From the IMG/VR virus record IMGVR_UViG_3300048804_000006, positions 1 through 63,741 of that record: a stretch of 63,741 bases of DNA. One strand, 5' to 3'. The notes under the pieces were generated by a model that searched no databases, was not told the DNA's origin, and saw only the letters and a program-made list of their open reading frames with translations. A program made the position numbers and the translations under genes. This document shows positions 35,701 through 46,768 of the stretch, one piece after another. Numbering within the stretch: position 1 is the first letter of the stretch; each line of letters begins with the position of its first letter. Source of the DNA: a virus.

Positions 35701-37011
35701 CTACCGAGACGCGAGGACCACGAAATCCGACTGAGTTGCAGCAGCGGTCCCCTTGTAGGGAGTTAAAGCTGTTGCACGAACAGGTTGGCCGTCGACGCGC
35801 AGAACGAACCGGAAAACTTGCTCATCATAGATGAATCTCACGTGGATCGACACATCGGACTGGACCCCACCCTTCTGGGCCAGAATGTACCCACCGAAGT
35901 TGGCAAGGATGATATCACCCACATCGCCAAGAGCACTCGCCTGTTCAATCGGGATGACCGGGCGACCCAAAAGCGATCCATAGGGTGCGCCACTGATTCC
36001 ACCGGGCGGCATGTAGATCAACTGCCCACCCAAGCCTACAGCAAGGCTCATCTGATACATCTGCGGGAGGCACATCTGGTTGACGTACCAAGCGGAATTG
36101 AGATAACTTCCGGCAAATATGCGAGCCGACATGTTGATGACATTCTGCGCAACGATGGTATCCGCAGCCTGCCCACCCTCTTTGGCAACCGTGACCAAGC
36201 AACCGGAATTGAGAATGCCCAGAGGCTGTCCCGCACCCGTCCCACGAAGGATTGAATCGTCCACAACGAACGCGAACTCAGCGGGAAACGCTGCACGAAT
36301 GAAACCTTCGAGAGCTGCCGCATCTGCCAGAAGTTCGTCGGTCGCGTAACACAGGCCGATTAACTTATGGAGATTGAGTTCGATCTTGCGGAACTTCGGT
36401 TTCGACTTGGTTTTCTCGTCGGCTTCGTCGGCCCAGTAAGCCTGAATCCCACCCTGTCTGGAGCCGGTTGCGCGGGAGGTCTCGTCAACACCATTGATCT
36501 TGATGGAGTTGGCGTTTGCGCTGATCGGCTGAGGACGGCACCTGGGGGCCAAAATCGCCTGAGACACGAGATCTTTCAGGAGGTCGTTGACAAAATCCTG
36601 CTGCACAAGGAATCCGCCATCGGACTGTACGGTTTCGTTGAGGCCGGATGCCGCTGCATTGAACAGTCTGGGGTCTGCCGAGCCACCCGGACGCGCTGCG
36701 TTAACTACCGCAACCATCTGAGCGCCGAGGGAGCCGAATTTCTCCTTGTCGGTGCGAACAGCGGGTTTATCGACATGACTCTGAACTGTCTTGGCCGGTT
36801 CGGAAGCGGTAAGCCCTGCCGCAACTCGTTCTTGGCGCTCAGAGGTATTCACGGATGCTTTGATGTTTTCGACCTCATCCAGCATCTCGTTTTTCAGGGA
36901 GACTTCACTGGCAATGAGTTCACGGTTTTCTGCCGTGGCTTTCGCATCGATATCCGCAACCTTCTTCATGAGATTGGCGATATCCTGCTTGTACTGACTG
37001 ATTGTTTTCAT
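35701..37011 (-). CDS. major capsid protein, HK97 fold (with scaffold-like N-terminus)
   Basis: 436 residues from ATG 37011 (AGGAGGATCTATA upstream); a longer frame into the protease gene is not used. Residues 1-95 form the coiled-coil delta/scaffold domain cut by the prohead protease; the rest is the HK97 fold with LNETVQSDGGFLVQQDFVNDL, the E-loop region GGIQAYWADEADEKTKSKP, GTGAGQPLGILN and GRPVIPIEQASALGDVGD. It builds the icosahedral head. Confidence 0.93.
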   Translation of the reverse strand: MKTISQYKQDIANLMKKVADIDAKATAENRELIASEVSLKNEMLDEVENIKASVNTSERQERVAAGLTASEPAKTVQSHVDKPAVRTDKEKFGSLGAQMVAVVNAARPGGSADPRLFNAAASGLNETVQSDGGFLVQQDFVNDLLKDLVSQAILAPRCRPQPISANANSIKINGVDETSRATGSRQGGIQAYWADEADEKTKSKPKFRKIELNLHKLIGLCYATDELLADAAALEGFIRAAFPAEFAFVVDDSILRGTGAGQPLGILNSGCLVTVAKEGGQAADTIVAQNVINMSARIFAGSYLNSAWYVNQMCLPQMYQMSLAVGLGGQLIYMPPGGISGAPYGSLLGRPVIPIEQASALGDVGDIILANFGGYILAQKGGVQSDVSIHVRFIYDEQVFRFVLRVDGQPVRATALTPYKGTAAATQSDFVVLASR

Positions 37012-37036
37012 TATAGATCCTCCTGTTGAATAATTG

Positions 37037-37981
37037 TTATTTTGATGGAGCGGCAACTTCCGCCCTACATAGCAATTCCGAGACGCGATCACGTTTTGCC
37101 TGTTCAACTACCACCGGAGCCGCGACATCACGCTTTGGCTCGACCGGAGCTACCGGCTCGACAATGGGAGTTACGAGCGGATTGGATATAGGAGGATCGG
37201 CATCACGCTTCTCATCCTGATAACCTTTCGCTATGATCGTCTTGGCCTGCTTATCGCTGAACCCTGCATCACGTAGGGCCTTTTCCGCTGATCGTTTGAG
37301 TTTGGATGCCGACTGGTTACGATGGCTGAGAGAGTCGGGGACTTTCGCGTAGATTGAGAGGTCGTAGGAACCCTCGACTGGCTGGCCGTCATAGATCCGG
37401 TCGATCATCCCGCAATCCAATGCTTCCTGAGCAGTCATCCAGGTTTCTGCCTCCATCATAGGCAGCATCTCTTCCTTTTTCATGCCGGTTTTCTTGGCAT
37501 AGTCGTTGGCTATGGAGTCGTTGATTTTGGAATGTAACGCCATCTCCTTCTGCATATCATCACAGAGTTCCTGAAGGTCGTCCTCATTGAAGTAACCGAG
37601 GATGTCAATCATCGACATCGCCTTATGAATCATAATGAATCCGCCATCAACCATCTCGATCTCATTGGCACCCATCATCATGAACGAGGCTGCGGAGGCG
37701 GATAGCCCGTCTACGTGCGCGATTACGTTGGCCTTGTGCTGCTCAATGCAGGTTTTCATTGCCCGAGCCGCGAAGATATCGCCACCGGATGAGTCGATTC
37801 GGAGATGGATTGTATCGGCAGTGATTGCATTGAACTCCTTGATCCACTCTTGGTGGTCGATCCCGAACCAGCCGCCGATGTCGCCGTAAAGGTAGATAGT
37901 CGCCTCGGTGGGGGACTTGTCAGTGATGGATTCGCGTTTATTCGACCGTGATCGCACGGAAGTCTTATGGGTTATCAACAT
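37037..37981 (-). CDS. prohead protease, ClpP/S14-like
   Basis: 314 residues from ATG 37981 (AAGGAGGCCCCA in front). Motifs: LRIDSSGGDIFAARAM (about 67-82), catalytic Ser in GLSASAASFMMM (about 95-106), His in GGFIMIHKAM (about 118-127) and Asp near IDRIYDG. It cuts scaffold and capsid N-termini during head maturation. A Pro/Val-rich C-terminal tail (about 260-314) may be the scaffold-like part. It follows the tiny Cys-rich peptide gene by 11 bases. Confidence 0.92.
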   Translation of the reverse strand: MLITHKTSVRSRSNKRESITDKSPTEATIYLYGDIGGWFGIDHQEWIKEFNAITADTIHLRIDSSGGDIFAARAMKTCIEQHKANVIAHVDGLSASAASFMMMGANEIEMVDGGFIMIHKAMSMIDILGYFNEDDLQELCDDMQKEMALHSKINDSIANDYAKKTGMKKEEMLPMMEAETWMTAQEALDCGMIDRIYDGQPVEGSYDLSIYAKVPDSLSHRNQSASKLKRSAEKALRDAGFSDKQAKTIIAKGYQDEKRDADPPISNPLVTPIVEPVAPVEPKRDVAAPVVVEQAKRDRVSELLCRAEVAAPSK

Positions 37982-37992
37982 TGGGGCCTCCT

Positions 37993-38115
37993 TTATCGGC
38001 AAGAGTGACAAGATGAACATTGCCTACAAATCTTACCTTTGCTGTTTATTATGTCCAAGGGAAAAGTCATTTTAGCCATCTTCTCTATTTTCGGCTTCTC
38101 ATATTTTTTGTTCAT
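37993..38115 (-). CDS. 40-residue peptide with CxxCxxCxxC end (RiPP-precursor-like)
   Basis: ATG 38115 overlaps the stop of the preceding Cys-rich gene (ATGA); stop TAA runs into the AGGAGG site of the protease gene. The peptide has a Lys/Glu-rich, leader-like start (MNKKYEKPKIEKM), a hydrophobic turn (FPLDIINSKGK) and a tip CRQCSSCHSCR with four Cys at three-residue steps. The YxKPxIE start and Cys tip look like precursors of radical-SAM-modified peptides, from memory. No maturase is recognised; a metal-binding peptide is the main alternative. Confidence 0.7.
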   Translation of the reverse strand: MNKKYEKPKIEKMAKMTFPLDIINSKGKICRQCSSCHSCR

Positions 38116-38336
38116 TTGGCTTTTCCCAAACACCTTCCATCCGCGTCAAGATGAACATCCATGCAACCGCATTGATAAACACCGGGAATTGGACTAACAT
38201 TGAATTTGCACTCTCCATTGTCACAAGTCAGGCCGACCTTCCGTAATTTGCAACCGTTGACTGTCCACCAGTTGCATTCCTTGGCTTCGCAAAAGTATCG
38301 ACCATTGCATTTTCTGAACACGCCCGACCGTTTCAC
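38112..38336 (-). CDS. Cys-rich small protein, 74 residues
   Basis: ATG 38336 overlaps the portal/methyltransferase stop by 4 bases. Nine cysteines are spread as KCNGRYFCEAKECNWW, GCKLRK, TCDNGECKF and YQCGCMDVHL, with DGRCLGKAK near the end, a pattern fit for zinc or disulfide-rich folding. Coupled on both sides, between the portal and the RiPP-like peptide. Not recognised. Confidence 0.75.
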   Translation of the reverse strand: MKRSGVFRKCNGRYFCEAKECNWWTVNGCKLRKVGLTCDNGECKFNVSPIPGVYQCGCMDVHLDADGRCLGKAK

Positions 38337-40222
38337 TTTTCCACCTTGGCAACAATGATTAAATGTCTTTCCGCAGCCTCATCAAACTCCTCTTCGGGAT
38401 GGGTGTAAATGTCCAAGATAGAGAAATTGTTTTTCTTCATCAAATTGACAAACTCGTTTACGGTAACAAACGATTCTTTCGACCCATCGATTCTTTCCAC
38501 ATCTGAATAAACATAAAGAGTCATCATCCCTTTCTTCTTGAGAACTCGGTCAATTTCAGGGATGCTCTTATTCATGTTGGTAGAATGCAAAACACTTAAC
38601 GAGAACACAGAATCAAAGGAATTGTCGGAGAATTTTAACGACTCCGCACTCCCGACTTGGAAATCTATCTCAACACCAGCGTCTTTTGCGTTTTGCTTGG
38701 CTATCTCTATCGCTTCAGGAACGATGTCGATTGCGGTTACTTTGAGTCCTGCCAAAGCGAACAGGATTGAATCGCGACCGTTACCGCAACCAATTTCCAA
38801 GATGGATTTCTTACTCTTCACTAACAATTCCTGAGCGAAACTCTGAGCCAATTGAGATGATTGCATAGATTCCGTCCAATGAGCGTCACCCTCTTCGTAA
38901 ATCTTTTTCCACGGAACCTTTTCCTTTTTCTGATTTACTATATTCGCAGGCTTGGCCTCTTTCGGAGCTGTCGGATTAGAGGTTACGGTTGGTTTCGATT
39001 GATTTTTCATCCACTCATCTATTTTACTGAGCGGGATCATATTGTTAACTGCTATAAATGGCTCGTCGGCGTATGCGTCGGGGAATGGATCGAAGTTTTC
39101 CTTCCGGCGTATGTCGTTGATGGTCATCCCGCCGATCCCAGACATTGTTTTATAGTAAGCGGCGCGATCCGCATTGTTGCCACGGAGTAAGCCATCGAAG
39201 TTATGGCGGAAATAAAGGAATTGCTTGAATCGCTCGTTGTCGGAGAGTAATTGGAGATCGAGATTCTGTTCAAAGTTGATTGCAACCGGCAATAAAGAAT
39301 CTACAACATACGAAATTTGTTCATTTTCTATGTTGTTGTTGGTGGAGCTTTGCATCGCTTTCAGTTTGTGGACCGGGAGATTGAACCATCTCGCGATCTC
39401 CGGGATTTGGAACTCGCGGGACTCTAAAAATTGTGCGTCCTCAGGCGGGATGCCGATTTTCTCTAACTTCATCCCCTCTTGGAGCAATAAAACTCGGTGA
39501 GCATTGGATAACCCTTCGTATTCCTCAGCAAACGCCTCCCTGAACGCCTTCGGATCTTTCATTGTGCCGGGATGAGATACAGCAACTCCCGGATGCGAGC
39601 CTTGGCCGAAGAATAGCGATCCAAAGGTCTCCATCGCCATCCCGAGGCCGATTGATTTCCGAGCCATCGCGATTACAGAGTAGCCTTGGAAGCCGTCGAA
39701 TCCGAGTCCGGGGATATGGAGGATCTTGTCACGGGTGAAGGTGTAAGTTTGGGTGTCTACGGTGATTTTATAAACGAGTTGGCCGTCTTCCATTGTAGGT
39801 GTCACACGATTAGGGGATATCGGCCAGAGTTGAGTAATTTCCCCGTAGCCGTTGCGGACCTTCTCAGCATAACAGTTCCCCCATGTCATTAAGTGAGCGA
39901 TCATAGTTGACCGGCCTACGCTGGCAGTCATGATGGGATTGAATGCGGAATGGAGGACGTGGAATAGTCGCCGGTCGCGGACTTCAACTGTTTTCTTGTT
40001 GGCGCTTTGGAGGAGATGGAGCGGTAAAGTTGATAGCGAACCGGAGTAGAGGTTGATTGCATTCCAGACAGCTGAGTAGGTGAGGGCAGATGACTCGTTA
40101 ACATTGGAGCCGGAGATATCCTGCGAGCCAGCGAGATTCCATAGAGAAGGCTGCCAGCTTTTCTCATCGCTGAGGGATAAATTAATGAATGGGAGTCTCG
40201 GCAACCGTCCAACAATCGACAT
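38333..40222 (-). CDS. HK97-type portal protein fused to an SAM methyltransferase
   Basis: 629 residues. About 1-405 is an HK97-like portal (YSAVWNAINLYSGSLSTLP near 50; LEKIGIPPEDAQFLESREF; EIARWFNLPVHKL); about 405-440 a Pro/Lys linker; about 440-629 a class I methyltransferase (SILEIGCGNGRDSILFALAG, then VTAIDIV, FDSVFSLSVLH). The reading frame is continuous. Portals are dodecamers at one head vertex, so each head would carry twelve methyltransferase domains. Substrate unknown; a capture of a neighbouring enzyme gene is likely. Start ATG 40222 has a poor binding site. Confidence 0.9.
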   Translation of the reverse strand: MSIVGRLPRLPFINLSLSDEKSWQPSLWNLAGSQDISGSNVNESSALTYSAVWNAINLYSGSLSTLPLHLLQSANKKTVEVRDRRLFHVLHSAFNPIMTASVGRSTMIAHLMTWGNCYAEKVRNGYGEITQLWPISPNRVTPTMEDGQLVYKITVDTQTYTFTRDKILHIPGLGFDGFQGYSVIAMARKSIGLGMAMETFGSLFFGQGSHPGVAVSHPGTMKDPKAFREAFAEEYEGLSNAHRVLLLQEGMKLEKIGIPPEDAQFLESREFQIPEIARWFNLPVHKLKAMQSSTNNNIENEQISYVVDSLLPVAINFEQNLDLQLLSDNERFKQFLYFRHNFDGLLRGNNADRAAYYKTMSGIGGMTINDIRRKENFDPFPDAYADEPFIAVNNMIPLSKIDEWMKNQSKPTVTSNPTAPKEAKPANIVNQKKEKVPWKKIYEEGDAHWTESMQSSQLAQSFAQELLVKSKKSILEIGCGNGRDSILFALAGLKVTAIDIVPEAIEIAKQNAKDAGVEIDFQVGSAESLKFSDNSFDSVFSLSVLHSTNMNKSIPEIDRVLKKKGMMTLYVYSDVERIDGSKESFVTVNEFVNLMKKNNFSILDIYTHPEEEFDEAAERHLIIVAKVEK

Positions 40223-40673: not shown

Positions 40674-40708
40674 TTTAATATAGTAGATTAAATTAGAATA
40701 AATCCCCC
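40674..40708. promoter_or_regulatory. operator-like AT-rich inverted repeat
   Basis: GGATTTAATATAGTAG on one side and TTAGAATAAATCC on the other share GGATTTA/TAAATCC ends. It includes TAGATTAAATTAG, matching the palindrome near promoters P1, P4 and P5. It overlaps the end of the PAPS-reductase-like gene and precedes P3. Confidence 0.45.
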
Positions 40709-41661
40709 TGTGATGAAATTTCTTTACGATAACTCACCCCGATGTAATCCATCACCTTGCTTAATCCTAAGTCATTTATACAATATTCATAAATCTTTGG
40801 ATGGGTTCGCTCCATTCTTTGAAACCGATTCTCGCCCTTTTCAAGATGAACGCCAAACATGCAGAACATGCAACCAGTCCGTTGCTCGCCGGTTGTGAAT
40901 AATTTTCCATCCGGCCCCTCTTTAATCTCTCCGTAAATTGATGAGTATGGGAGATCGAATTGCTTAATGTATTGCAAAATGTCTTGATGGAGCCAAAACG
41001 CAATTGGCTGCGACAATGGATGTTTCGATTCAAACGACTGGCACCCATTTTTGAGATATTGCCTCTCCCTTAACAGGCTTTCATCAGCCATTGTCCCCGA
41101 CATCCCCTTCCTGCCAGTCTGCTTTTCGTATTGATGAAATGGACGCTTCTTCATTACATCACAACACTTCTCTGATATTTTGAATGGAGCCTCAGCCAAT
41201 CTTATATATTTCTTAGGTATTTTCTGAGAAGGGCAGTAGACTCCACTTTGATTCATTCCGGTAAGCCTTAAATTCACTGTCTTTTTATTTTGATCCCCCG
41301 ATCTCTGCAAATCATTTATAAACCTACTTACATTTTTACTCACCACTGGATAGCCGTATTTTGCCAAAACCTCCTTGAACCCGATCTTCGGCTTCATCCA
41401 TTCCACATTATCCCAAGTCTTTACAAAGCTCCTGATCTCTGGATATTCCAATCCGGTATCGGCAAAAACTGCCGGAATTTCTGGATATAGACTTCGGGCA
41501 ATAGCCAAAAGAACCGTGCTGTCAAGGCCGCCCGAGAAAGACACATAAATCTCTCCACCCCAATAATTGTACCAAGCTGTAATTCGATGCTCGGTATATT
41601 TTATTTTCAATTCAAGGGGCAATCCCTGCCTTTGGCGAAGCTGCCACATTTCAACTTTCAT
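40693..41661 (-). CDS. PAPS reductase-like / DndC-like N-type ATP pyrophosphatase
   Basis: 322 residues. VSFSGGLDSTVLLAIA (about 36-51) is the PP-loop that binds and adenylates substrates with ATP. A later RTGCMFCMFG has a CxxC pair, and KCCDVMKKRPFHQY may add further Cys, so an Fe-S or thiolate site is plausible. The family reduces PAPS, activates sulfur in Dnd systems, or acts on nucleic acid. It lies between the large terminase and the portal, as in several phages. Overlaps the terminase stop by one base. Confidence 0.85.
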   Translation of the reverse strand: MKVEMWQLRQRQGLPLELKIKYTEHRITAWYNYWGGEIYVSFSGGLDSTVLLAIARSLYPEIPAVFADTGLEYPEIRSFVKTWDNVEWMKPKIGFKEVLAKYGYPVVSKNVSRFINDLQRSGDQNKKTVNLRLTGMNQSGVYCPSQKIPKKYIRLAEAPFKISEKCCDVMKKRPFHQYEKQTGRKGMSGTMADESLLRERQYLKNGCQSFESKHPLSQPIAFWLHQDILQYIKQFDLPYSSIYGEIKEGPDGKLFTTGEQRTGCMFCMFGVHLEKGENRFQRMERTHPKIYEYCINDLGLSKVMDYIGVSYRKEISSQGDLF

Positions 41662-43502
41662 TACAATTCCCCTCTCAATTTCTTCCTCATGTCCTCTTTA
41701 CTTAACCCATCATAAACACTTCCAGTCTCTACCGCTTTCATCGCTCGTGAAACTGCCATTATCAGGGCAACCACCGCATCTATTTTGAACTCGTTTTTCT
41801 CCTTGGTAGGGTAGTAATATTTCACCGGCCCCGAGTTACGGCCCTGTTTCCTTACGGTATTCCCCATCATCCAAGTCATCACCGGGTCGCCATCAAACCA
41901 GAGAGTTTGCGAATAAATGCGGCCTTCGGTTTCCTTCATCGGCTCGGACATTAATTGCGGACCTTGGGTGATCTCCACGCACCGGCTGACTTCATCGCCA
42001 TCAACGGTATGAGATCCAAGCCATTCGGAGACGTTGCTGATTAAGTAATTCGCCTCACGGGGGTCGAATGCCAATTCGATAATCGGGTGGTCGATATTGA
42101 TCCCCTTGAGGTCGTTCTCAATGTATAAAAAATCCGTCCTCGCGCCGGGAGTCTCGGTAATATAACCCTCCTTGACCCATTTGATGTAGTGGTCATTACC
42201 AGCGAGCTGGATAGTTTCCTCGGGGAGGTAGTATTTACCGAATACGATAAAGTCCTTTTGGATGATCTCGCGTTCGACTTCCTCCTTGGTCTCGGGATCG
42301 ATGAGTAGACGGGTTATGGTGCGTTCCTTGCCTTCAAATAGGAGTACAAGAGCACAGATGTCGATCTTGGAGGCCAAGTCGAGCGCGGCGTAACAGGGCT
42401 GGCCCTTGAAATCGGATAGCTTGAGGGATGGATTGGAACACGCCGCCCACTTTGTCATGTTCATCCAAGCTTGACCCGCATTCACCCATCGGTTTAAATG
42501 TTTAGTAAGATTGATGTTTTGCTTGGATACGTCTGTCAATGTCTCGGTGAATTTCCGCTTGAGATAATCTTCTTCGATAGATACCATGTAATTAGGGTTG
42601 GCCTTTTCCCAAGTCCTAAAGTCATCAATCTTATCTTCATCGTCAATCCCGTACATCAAAGCGAAGAACGAGTCGTCTTGAATGGTCCCGTCAAGGATCT
42701 TACAGGCTCGTAAGTATAAATCGTAACAAGGAACTGAGGTGTCAGTGCCTGCGGTAGTCACAACGAGAAGTAATGGTTGCTCTCTTGCGCCCATCCCCGT
42801 CGAGAAGGTATCGAATTGACTTGAGTTTTTCGACTCATGGAACTCATCCACTATGGCATAATGAGGACTCGCCCCATCGCCGGGAACGCCAACCACAAGT
42901 TCAAACCGGGACATGTCGGATAGGCGATAAATAGAGGTTGGATTTTTTGGAGTCCCCGACAGGGACATTTTAAAGCGTTCGCAGAAAGCAGGGTTGTTTT
43001 TGGCCATCATCCAAGCTGGCCTGAACACTTCGAGGGCCTGTTTTTCCGTATTTGCACCCGAATAAACCTCGCTACCCATCTCATCATCAGCTACAAGCCC
43101 ATAAAGTCCCGAGATCGCGCCCACGATGCTTTTGCCATTCTTCCTGGGGATGAGTAACAGGGCCAACGAGAACCGTCTTTTGTTGTTCTTTTTCTTAACC
43201 CAGCCCCAAATAGCACACTCGAAAAACACTTGATGAGGCTCAAGTTTTAACTTCTTCCCGGCCCATTTACCCTTGACATGAACCATCTTTTCGGAGAATG
43301 AACATCGCCGGTTGGCTAATTGTGAGTCGTATCGGTAGAGATAATCAGAGGATTTAGACTTTTCGAGGTCGTCAAGGTGTCTTTTACACGCTAATTTGAT
43401 ATTCCGGCAGGAGAGGATCTTCTCGCTGAGAATGTCTTGGCAATATTCGAGAGCGATTTGTGAATAATTCTTCTCAACAGGCTTAGAAGTTTTCAAACTC
43501 AT
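41661..43502 (-). CDS. terL: terminase large subunit (HK97/Terminase_1-like)
   Basis: 613 residues. Walker A-like IPRKNGKSIVGA (about 117-128) and Walker B HYAIVDEFHESK (about 218-229) form the packaging motor; AALDLASKIDICALVLLF and LAFDPREANYLI hold the acidic residues of the nuclease. It cuts and pumps the genome into proheads. It overlaps the small subunit by 20 bases and precedes the PAPS-reductase-like gene. Confidence 0.95.
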   Translation of the reverse strand: MSLKTSKPVEKNYSQIALEYCQDILSEKILSCRNIKLACKRHLDDLEKSKSSDYLYRYDSQLANRRCSFSEKMVHVKGKWAGKKLKLEPHQVFFECAIWGWVKKKNNKRRFSLALLLIPRKNGKSIVGAISGLYGLVADDEMGSEVYSGANTEKQALEVFRPAWMMAKNNPAFCERFKMSLSGTPKNPTSIYRLSDMSRFELVVGVPGDGASPHYAIVDEFHESKNSSQFDTFSTGMGAREQPLLLVVTTAGTDTSVPCYDLYLRACKILDGTIQDDSFFALMYGIDDEDKIDDFRTWEKANPNYMVSIEEDYLKRKFTETLTDVSKQNINLTKHLNRWVNAGQAWMNMTKWAACSNPSLKLSDFKGQPCYAALDLASKIDICALVLLFEGKERTITRLLIDPETKEEVEREIIQKDFIVFGKYYLPEETIQLAGNDHYIKWVKEGYITETPGARTDFLYIENDLKGINIDHPIIELAFDPREANYLISNVSEWLGSHTVDGDEVSRCVEITQGPQLMSEPMKETEGRIYSQTLWFDGDPVMTWMMGNTVRKQGRNSGPVKYYYPTKEKNEFKIDAVVALIMAVSRAMKAVETGSVYDGLSKEDMRKKLRGEL

Positions 43503-45611: not shown

Positions 45612-46406
45612 TTAATCACAATTATCAAACAAAGGCAAGATCTTTTTTTGTAAATATTCTTCGATTCGCTTCCTTCCGATTTCACAATATGTAGCATCCT
45701 TTTCAATGCAAATATATTTTCGATTAGTATTCATGGCTGCGATGGCAGTCGTAAATGATCCCGCGCAATTATCAAGCACCATGTCGCCTTCATTCGTGTA
45801 GGTGAGAATAAGGTACTCAAACAGGGCTACGGGCTTCTGGGTGGGGTGAGGATATTCTTTACCACATCTCCCAGTTGGCAATTTTATATCTATGATGGAT
45901 CGTGGGGAACGCAATCCATCTGCTTTCAATGTCGTCGGGATTTGAGCAATATTATTGCTTTCAGTTGCCTTGGATGCAGGCATAGTCCGTTCTTTGCCTT
46001 TCGGGTGACATTTTAACGAATAATCAGATCGTGATATACGGATCGGATTATAGGTAGGGTGCTTATTGTAAAATACGGCAATATTTTCATGCTCCTTAAA
46101 CGGCATATATTTAACAGTCGCAAAATTACTTCCAACTCCCTTGTTCCAAATCCATTCATACTTAAACATTTTCAGATTACTTGCTATTAGAGCCGTGGTG
46201 AACGGCTGGCTTGCCGTCAGCACTATCGCCCCGTTGTCCTTAATCAGCCGCTTGTATTGCGCCCAAAGAGGCTCAAAGGGGATGATGGTGTCCCATTTAC
46301 AGGCTGTCGTGCCGTAGGGGAGATCACAAAGGATTAAATCTATTGACTTATCCGCCAGCGTCGGCATAATAGTCAGGCAATTCCCGTGGTATAATTTATT
46401 CTCCAT
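45612..46406 (-). CDS. DNA methyltransferase, N4-cytosine/N6-adenine class
   Basis: 264 residues from ATG 46406. Catalytic motif IV is CDLPYGT (variant of DPPY) near residue 32; motif I near the C-terminus is LDNCAGSFTTAIAA. The order (IV first) is that of beta-class enzymes, and HPTQKPVALFEYLI precedes motif I. The last 45 residues match those of the second methylase at 52412-53236. It probably methylates phage DNA against host restriction. Confidence 0.85.
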   Translation of the reverse strand: MENKLYHGNCLTIMPTLADKSIDLILCDLPYGTTACKWDTIIPFEPLWAQYKRLIKDNGAIVLTASQPFTTALIASNLKMFKYEWIWNKGVGSNFATVKYMPFKEHENIAVFYNKHPTYNPIRISRSDYSLKCHPKGKERTMPASKATESNNIAQIPTTLKADGLRSPRSIIDIKLPTGRCGKEYPHPTQKPVALFEYLILTYTNEGDMVLDNCAGSFTTAIAAMNTNRKYICIEKDATYCEIGRKRIEEYLQKKILPLFDNCD

Positions 46407-46768
46407 TACCCCCTCTTCTTCCACCGTTCCGGGCCGTGGATTGCCTCATGGTGTTTTTGACAAATTCCAACCCAGTTGGATTGGTCCCAGAACTTTTCCC
46501 AATTCCCTGCATGCGGGATTTTATGATGAATAATGTAGGTAGGCTCAACCTTACCCTCCCGTTCACATTCAGCACATAGAGGATGATCGGATTTATAAAT
46601 TGAAATCGCGACTCGGTATCTCGTTGAGTGAATCCATTTCCGCCAAGGTTCATTTTCTCTCTCCTTCTCGTATTTCAGATCCGCCTGCTTGATATGACTC
46701 TCGCACCGACCACGGGGAACAAGTTTATTGCATCCGGGATAGGTGCATGGCTTGAGTGGGATCAGCAT
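46406..46768 (-). CDS. HNH endonuclease (packaging-associated type)
   Basis: 120 residues with HNH pattern: PLCAECEREGKV, YIIHHKIPHAGN, NWVGICQKHHEAIHG. Such a gene near terminase is common in HK97-like phages and in some is needed for cos cleavage with terminase. Position in this genome (2.6 kb upstream of the small terminase) fits that. Start ATG 46768; coupled to the methylase by a one-base overlap. Confidence 0.85.
   Translation of the reverse strand: MLIPLKPCTYPGCNKLVPRGRCESHIKQADLKYEKERENEPWRKWIHSTRYRVAISIYKSDHPLCAECEREGKVEPTYIIHHKIPHAGNWEKFWDQSNWVGICQKHHEAIHGPERWKKRG

What the first reader, a model, noticed from the sequence alone, without database searches (positions are those of the whole stretch)
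38333..40222. Portal protein fused to an SAM methyltransferase
One uninterrupted frame encodes a complete HK97-type portal (about 405 residues) and a class I methyltransferase (motif ILEIGCGNGRDS). A dodecameric portal would place twelve methyltransferase domains at the DNA entry vertex. It could modify the first DNA in, a host factor, or the small Cys-rich peptides encoded right after it. Fusion is seen; the role is inference.
Basis: partly seen in the sequence, partly recalled or inferred. Interest (0 to 1): 0.85.

Follow-up and report, generated by a model that had tools for sequence, protein, structure and literature searches.

The report
Mobile methyltransferase fused to phage portals
A phage's DNA-entry ring protein carries an extra methyl-transferring enzyme on its inner end, and the same enzyme, always followed by the same small cysteine-rich protein, has been joined again and again to head proteins of unrelated phages, which suggests a previously undescribed enzyme that phages carry inside their particles.

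Summary
In detail: one uninterrupted 629-codon frame, on the minus strand (38333-40222), encodes a complete HK97-type portal (Pfam E 2e-95), a disordered linker and a class I SAM methyltransferase (E 3e-23). It is not an assembly accident. In IMG/VR I found 41 further distinct copies of this methyltransferase. Every copy whose contig continues downstream (42 of 42 loci in the unsaturated scan) is followed, usually with a 1-4 base overlap, by a homologue of the 74-residue Cys-rich protein at 38112-38336 (CRP). The methyltransferase is the C-terminal domain of portals of several unrelated families (PF04860, PF06074, PF06381, phrog_10963; 28 of 42 cassettes) and once of a prohead-protease-like protein; elsewhere it is a separate gene, mostly in the head or neck region. 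Methyltransferase and portal trees disagree, so the pair moves between phages. Portal-effector fusions and MuF toxins are known in principle; this enzyme-plus-CRP pair was not found described. Best explanation: a virion-carried methyltransferase module anchored at the inner mouth of the portal, probably delivered or acting at genome entry. Substrate unknown; it lacks the DNA-amino-MTase motif of P1 DarB. Position inside the capsid and delivery are inferred, not shown.

The parts
38333..40222 (-). 629-aa portal-methyltransferase fusion protein (P0001)
   Evidence: open frame; Pfam/NCBIfam domains; structure model
39008..40222 (-). portal part, residues 1-405, HK97 type
   Evidence: PF04860 E 2e-95; Foldseek best match HK97 portal 8cez E 4e-26; aligns end to end with methyltransferase-free portals L011-L021, L139
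38915..39007 (-). linker, residues 406-436: old portal tail (homologous to L139 ...SNTAPKEVVS-stop) running into the methyltransferase
   Evidence: pLDDT under 50 at 414-433; no start codon within 12 codons of the domain edge
38333..38914 (-). class I SAM methyltransferase domain, residues 437-629, of a phage-specific family (W..Y..PHWA, LEIGCGNGRDSI, SVLHST, EFDExGEKH)
   Evidence: PF08241 E 2.8e-23; family alignment of 32; GC 42% against 49% in the portal
38112..38336 (-). Cys-rich protein CRP (P0002, 74 aa, GTG start overlapping the fusion's stop by 4 bases); 7 invariant Cys plus one invariant His in the family
   Evidence: present after the methyltransferase in 42 of 42 loci
37037..38020 (-). 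head maturation protease (Clp/S14 type), next gene of the head module
   Evidence: PF00574 E 7e-20, phrog_94 E 8e-48
41661..43502 (-). terminase large subunit, upstream
   Evidence: phrog_9 E 2e-140
35701..37029 (-). HK97-fold major capsid protein
   Evidence: PF05065 E 3e-46

Best explanation
A mobile two-gene module (a methyltransferase, MT, plus the Cys-rich protein, CRP) that phages mount on the head. SHOWN: the MT is the C-terminal domain of portals from several families, is linked to the window's portal by a tail predicted to be flexible, is always followed by CRP, usually by a start/stop overlap, and has been transferred between phages. INFERRED: because a portal's C-terminus forms the crown on the inside of the head, the MT domains sit inside the capsid around the inner mouth of the DNA channel, with the co-translated CRP (probably a zinc- or other metal-binding protein) bound to them. 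From there they are most likely delivered with the DNA, possibly after release from the portal by the head protease, and methylate a host factor or metabolite in the first minutes of infection (early effector or counter-defence), as MuF-borne enzymes and P1 Dar proteins are thought to do.
For: Recurrent fusion to the C-terminus of head proteins: 28 of 42 distinct cassettes on portals of PF04860, PF06074, PF06381 or phrog_10963 type, 1 on a prohead-protease-like protein, 9 as separate genes mostly in the head/neck region, 2 on unknown proteins, 2 cut by contig ends. CRP follows in 42/42 loci, most with -4 or -1 overlaps. MT and CRP under purifying selection (dN/dS about 0.04-0.34 in close pairs). 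MT tree against partner type needs 10 changes, and the window's MT is sister to MTs on portals of other clades (MT 64% identical where portals are 32%). The window's nearest complete portal relative L139 ends at the linker and lacks the MT. Precedents: portal- and MuF-fused effector domains (PMC5512222), MuF toxins next to portal genes (PMC5576092), P22 ejection proteins clustered at the portal crown (PMC4992974), P1 Dar proteins co-ejected (PMC12810830). An ADP-ribosyltransferase gene lies directly before the MT in L333 (PF03496 E 6e-6).
Against: No virion proteomics; no proof that the fusion is incorporated, cleaved or ejected. Twelve covalently bound domains could not leave through the channel unless cut off. 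MT substrate unknown; CRP gave no confident fold (pLDDT 49). Nine cassettes are not fused, so fusion is not obligatory. Several of the host phages are only known as fragments.
Confidence: 0.5

Rival explanations
1. The MT works in place during head assembly or packaging: it methylates CRP or a head/portal protein, and the modified CRP is the functional product (structural or metal-binding head component). It is never delivered.
For: CRP is the only invariant neighbour and is translationally coupled; a permanently attached enzyme fits an in-place role; the recognised fusion partners are all assembly proteins.
Against: Portal relatives of the window with otherwise the same head module lack both genes at this site, so the head does not need them; no conserved substrate site known.
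Confidence: 0.25
2. Passive cargo gene ('moron') such as a thiol or metalloid methyltransferase with a metal-binding partner; it landed in the moron hot spot next to the portal and became fused by loss of the portal stop codon, with no role in the virion.
For: The sites beside the portal carry changing moron genes in relatives; a Met at the domain edge of many fused copies looks like an old start codon; NCBIfam's best MT neighbours include metal(loid) methyltransferase selenoproteins, far under cut-off.
Against: Repeated in-frame fusion to different portal families and a protease is unlikely to be passive, and no fusions to non-head proteins were recognised; the C-terminal direction is constant; the window has no internal start for a free MT.
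Confidence: 0.15
3. The MT modifies the phage DNA as it enters or leaves through the portal, protecting it from restriction, as proposed for P1 DarB.
For: Position at the DNA channel; DarB is a virion MTase (PMC5512222).
Against: No (D/N/S)PP(Y/F/W) motif at the catalytic site (the two hits in 32 look like the DPPHW of the N-terminal HW motif in the alignment), no PCQ, no recognised target-recognition domain, no helicase; the window has a separate N6/N4 DNA methylase at 45612-46424.
Confidence: 0.07
4. The MT is made as a free protein by internal initiation, or the fusion is a sequencing or assembly artefact.
For: Many fused copies have ATG at the MT edge.
Against: Those ATGs lack a Shine-Dalgarno sequence in all fused copies but one (L336), and the window has no start codon there; the same architecture in independent contigs rules out an artefact.
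Confidence: 0.03

Closest known systems
HK97-type portal protein (PF04860, TIGR01537; HK97 portal, PDB 8cez)
   Same: Whole portal fold, gene order terminase - portal - Clp-type protease - HK97 capsid
   Different: Extra C-terminal linker plus methyltransferase of about 190 residues; clade relatives stop at 415-445
MuF polymorphic toxins (Jamet et al. 2017, PMC5576092)
   Same: An enzyme carried as C-terminal domain by a head protein of the packaging module next to the portal
   Different: Carrier is mostly the portal itself; enzyme is one conserved methyltransferase, not a variable toxin; the follower gene is one conserved family; the paper's main text does not mention methyl transfer
Portal- and MuF-fused effector domains and polyvalent proteins (Iyer et al. 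2017, PMC5512222)
   Same: PBECR RNase and 2H domains fused to portal or MuF, predicted to be injected
   Different: Their methylases are DarB-like DNA adenine MTases with helicases; no portal-Methyltransf_11-CRP cassette in the passages read
Phage P1 DarB / Dar system
   Same: A methyltransferase carried inside the head and delivered with DNA
   Different: Separate, about 2,000-residue DNA methylase-helicase; not portal-fused; different MTase type
Methyltransf_11-type enzymes (YcgJ, Methanosarcina 6mro/8gdu)
   Same: Nearest solved folds and sequences of the MT half
   Different: Free cellular enzymes, about 20% identity in the structural alignment; not linked to a portal or to CRP

Membership tests
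HK97-type portal protein | Profile match over curated cut-off across the whole model | tested here: met
   PF04860 320 bits (cut-off 39.1), positions 1-321/321; TIGR01537 248 bits (cut-off 112)
HK97-type portal protein | Portal fold | tested here: met
   8cez E 4.2e-26, TMt 0.72
HK97-type portal protein | Dodecameric ring at one vertex | not testable with these tools
   monomer model only
Class I SAM methyltransferase | Rossmann MT profile and motif I | tested here: met
   PF08241 82.8 bits (cut-off 21.2); E-x-G-C-G-x-G conserved in the family
Class I SAM methyltransferase | Methyl transfer activity | not testable with these tools
   needs assay
DarB-like DNA adenine methylase | (D/N/S)PP(Y/F/W) catalytic motif and SF2 helicase | tested here: not met
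   motif absent at the catalytic site in 32 members, no helicase domain
MuF/portal-borne effector proteins | Enzyme as C-terminal domain of portal or MuF in the packaging module | tested here: met
   MuF only suspected by a Cys/His motif in L319, not confirmed by Pfam
MuF/portal-borne effector proteins | Packaged in the virion and delivered | not testable with these tools
   needs virion proteomics and a delivery assay
MuF polymorphic toxins | Toxin domain with cognate immunity protein | tested here: inconclusive
   CRP always follows but is strongly conserved rather than matched to varying toxins; no known toxin domain
DUF1540 (for CRP) | Score over Pfam cut-off | tested here: not met
   16 of 33 CRPs match weakly, best E 5e-4; the window's CRP 15.9 bits against 22.1

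The most novel reading that the evidence does not exclude
An undescribed class of virion-carried enzyme: a mobile methyltransferase plus metal-binding CRP pair that different phages have independently mounted on whichever protein places it at the inner mouth of the DNA channel, from where it modifies a host target at the moment of genome entry.
Probability: 0.45. Interest if true: 0.9.

Novelty: new variant of a known kind. Interest (0 to 1): 0.8.

Why it matters
It turns an isolated oddity into a family with a clear pattern: the same enzyme and partner protein repeatedly hitched to portals. If the enzyme is delivered, it is a new type of early phage effector with a covalent packaging solution; if it acts in place, it is an enzyme built into a virion's gate. 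Either way the substrate and the role of CRP become directly testable with small recombinant proteins, and portal C-termini become a place to look for unrecognised effectors.

Tried and rejected
Single-sequence searches for the fusion found nothing; a profile of methyltransferases with the fusion as first row was needed. Portal-only scans gave relatives without the MT, useful as the empty state, and other portal fusions (MuF-like, protease, coiled coil). Searches of host genomes for close MT or CRP relatives were empty; the CRP profile search works, as 29/29 positive-control phages show. CRP in phage and plasmid records: none. PDB profile search and structure model of CRP: nothing usable. Internal start for a free MT: rejected. 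DNA-methylase reading: disfavoured. Artefact: rejected by recurrence. Literature searches for portal-methyltransferase fusions found none.

Full report
What is there. The window is an IMG/VR virus record. On its minus strand lies a head module: terminase small and large subunits, a PAPS-reductase-like gene, a small membrane protein, then the 629-codon frame of the finding (38333-40222), a 74-codon Cys-rich gene (38112-38336), the Clp-type head protease and the HK97-fold capsid protein. The 629-residue product matches the complete portal profile and a class I methyltransferase profile. An AlphaFold2 model made with 51 rows has mean pLDDT 86, two well-folded parts and a disordered linker at 414-433; its portal half matches the HK97 portal and its other half Methyltransf_11-type enzymes.

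Is it an accident? The closest complete relatives of this portal (52-62% identical) all stop at 415-445 equivalent residues without a methyltransferase. The best of them, L139, from a contig binned with Candidatus Methanoperedens, ends ...SNTAPKEVVS at the place where the window reads ...SNPTAPKEAKPANIVNQKKEKVPWKK, and its protease gene starts right there. So the window carries an insertion of methyltransferase plus Cys-rich gene at the portal's stop codon. The closest portal of all, L010 (78%), runs off its contig in the linker and cannot be judged. The inserted DNA has 42% GC against 49% in the portal.

Relatives of the fusion. Ordinary searches find none in 50,697 phage records. A scan of IMG/VR with an alignment whose conserved columns lie in the methyltransferase found L229/L230 (58% over residues 14-629), L231 (39% over 1-629) and others. 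In these the same Cys-rich protein (CRP) follows, except where the contig ends first (L240). A scan with the methyltransferase family, also not saturated, added eight distinct cassettes; the only close members without CRP are cut by a contig end. A tool note says that records very near the window may be left out of these searches.

What it is fused to. Of 42 distinct cassettes including the window, 28 are C-terminal parts of a portal: 18 of PF04860/phrog_12/phrog_2662 type, 3 of PF06381, 6 of PF06074/phrog_113 (one of these, L319, is a longer protein whose portal match is just under Pfam's cut-off and which has a MuF-like Cys/His motif that Pfam does not confirm), and 1 of phrog_10963. I did not scan L327 itself; it is counted with L235 because the two are near-identical at the junction and in the MT. 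One cassette is joined to a prohead-protease-like protein (L318; PF04586 E 3e-4, phrog_80 E 2e-7), with the portal as the gene before. Two are on unrecognised longer proteins (L337, L338). Nine are separate genes, most of them beside the terminase or portal genes, one in the neck-tail region of a T4-like phage (L390-L392). Two are cut by contig ends. Portals of phrog_10963 type occur both fused (L374) and unfused (L325, L329, L346).

Movement. On the methyltransferase tree the partner labels need 10 changes. The window's methyltransferase is 67% identical to that of L316 and 64% to that of L311, but their portals are 58% and 32% identical to the window's. On the portal tree the window groups with L010 and L139, and L316 with other methyltransferase-free portals (the places of L311, L336 and L342 there rest on long branches). 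So the MT-CRP pair has been gained or exchanged more than once on this portal clade (many losses are the alternative).

Gene pair. CRP usually begins inside the end of the methyltransferase gene (overlaps of 4 or 1 bases), as in the window (GTGA). In close pairs both genes show dN/dS about 0.04-0.34. CRP has seven invariant Cys and an invariant His, enough for two metal sites; this is inference. Only a weak likeness to DUF1540 was found. Its predicted structure is not confident. CRP is absent from 595 sampled genomes around the nearest cellular hits, while the same kind of search finds it in 29 of 29 control phages.

How it probably works. Portal C-termini form the crown facing the capsid interior (PMC12810830 for P1's C-terminal crown; PMC4992974 for P22's inward C-terminal barrel). 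A flexible linker would leave the methyltransferase free around the inner mouth of the channel, where P22's ejection proteins sit. Other effector-like domains (PBECR, 2H) are known on portal and MuF proteins (PMC5512222), MuF toxins lie next to portals (PMC5576092), and MuF-portal and VIP2-MuF fusions exist in Microbacterium phages (PMC7302621). Here too an ADP-ribosyltransferase gene sits directly before the MT in L333. I therefore favour a virion-carried module that acts at entry, with an in-place role on CRP or head proteins as main rival. DNA methylation is unlikely on motif grounds. Nothing here shows incorporation, cleavage, delivery or substrate.

Novelty. Enzyme-on-portal is a known kind; this enzyme, its invariant Cys-rich partner and its repeated capture by different portal families were not found described in the papers and libraries available. 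Most subscription papers are not held, so a description elsewhere is possible.

Noticed in passing
L110:3974-6757: 927-aa portal ORF of the window's clade: two portal segments split by about 480 residues that look like an intein with homing-endonuclease motifs (by eye; not scanned).
   Followed up: partly
L309:291-4004: 1237-aa ORF with an intein (PF14890, LAGLIDADG_3), a portal and the methyltransferase in one frame.
   Followed up: partly
L391:1-1968: T4-like terminase large subunit preceded by what looks like an intein/endonuclease segment in the same frame (by eye).
   Followed up: no
L333:2493-3251: ADP-ribosyltransferase (PF03496 E 6e-6) between portal and MT-CRP, the position of MuF toxins.
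   Followed up: partly
L071/L131, L117, L118, L121, L126, L044, L193: Other C-terminal portal fusions: Clp-type protease (L071/L131) and MuF-like domains with CxxC...HPPxHxGCxC motifs; L028/L029/L114/L128 have long coiled-coil-like tails (by eye).
   Followed up: no
L139, L141 (JAHFDG010000025.1, JAHFDG010000060.1): Two contigs binned with Candidatus Methanoperedens carry close relatives of this head module; archaeal host or binning error is open.
   Followed up: no
L010:3281-4816: Portal and capsid genes on opposite strands in a 4.8 kb contig, unlike the window: inversion or chimeric contig.
   Followed up: no
window 40693-41661: PAPS-reductase-family gene between terminase and portal (phrog_424 E 7e-53), a moron also seen next to the portal in other phages.
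   Followed up: no
window 45612-46424: N6/N4 DNA methylase (PF01555 E 5e-26), a separate DNA-modifying enzyme of the same phage.
   Followed up: no
BFVD A0A6J5S9A2, A0A6J5R7M5 (found with the window protein's model): Portal-like predicted viral structures named Zeta toxin and HAD-like proteins: possibly further enzyme-on-portal fusions.
   Followed up: no
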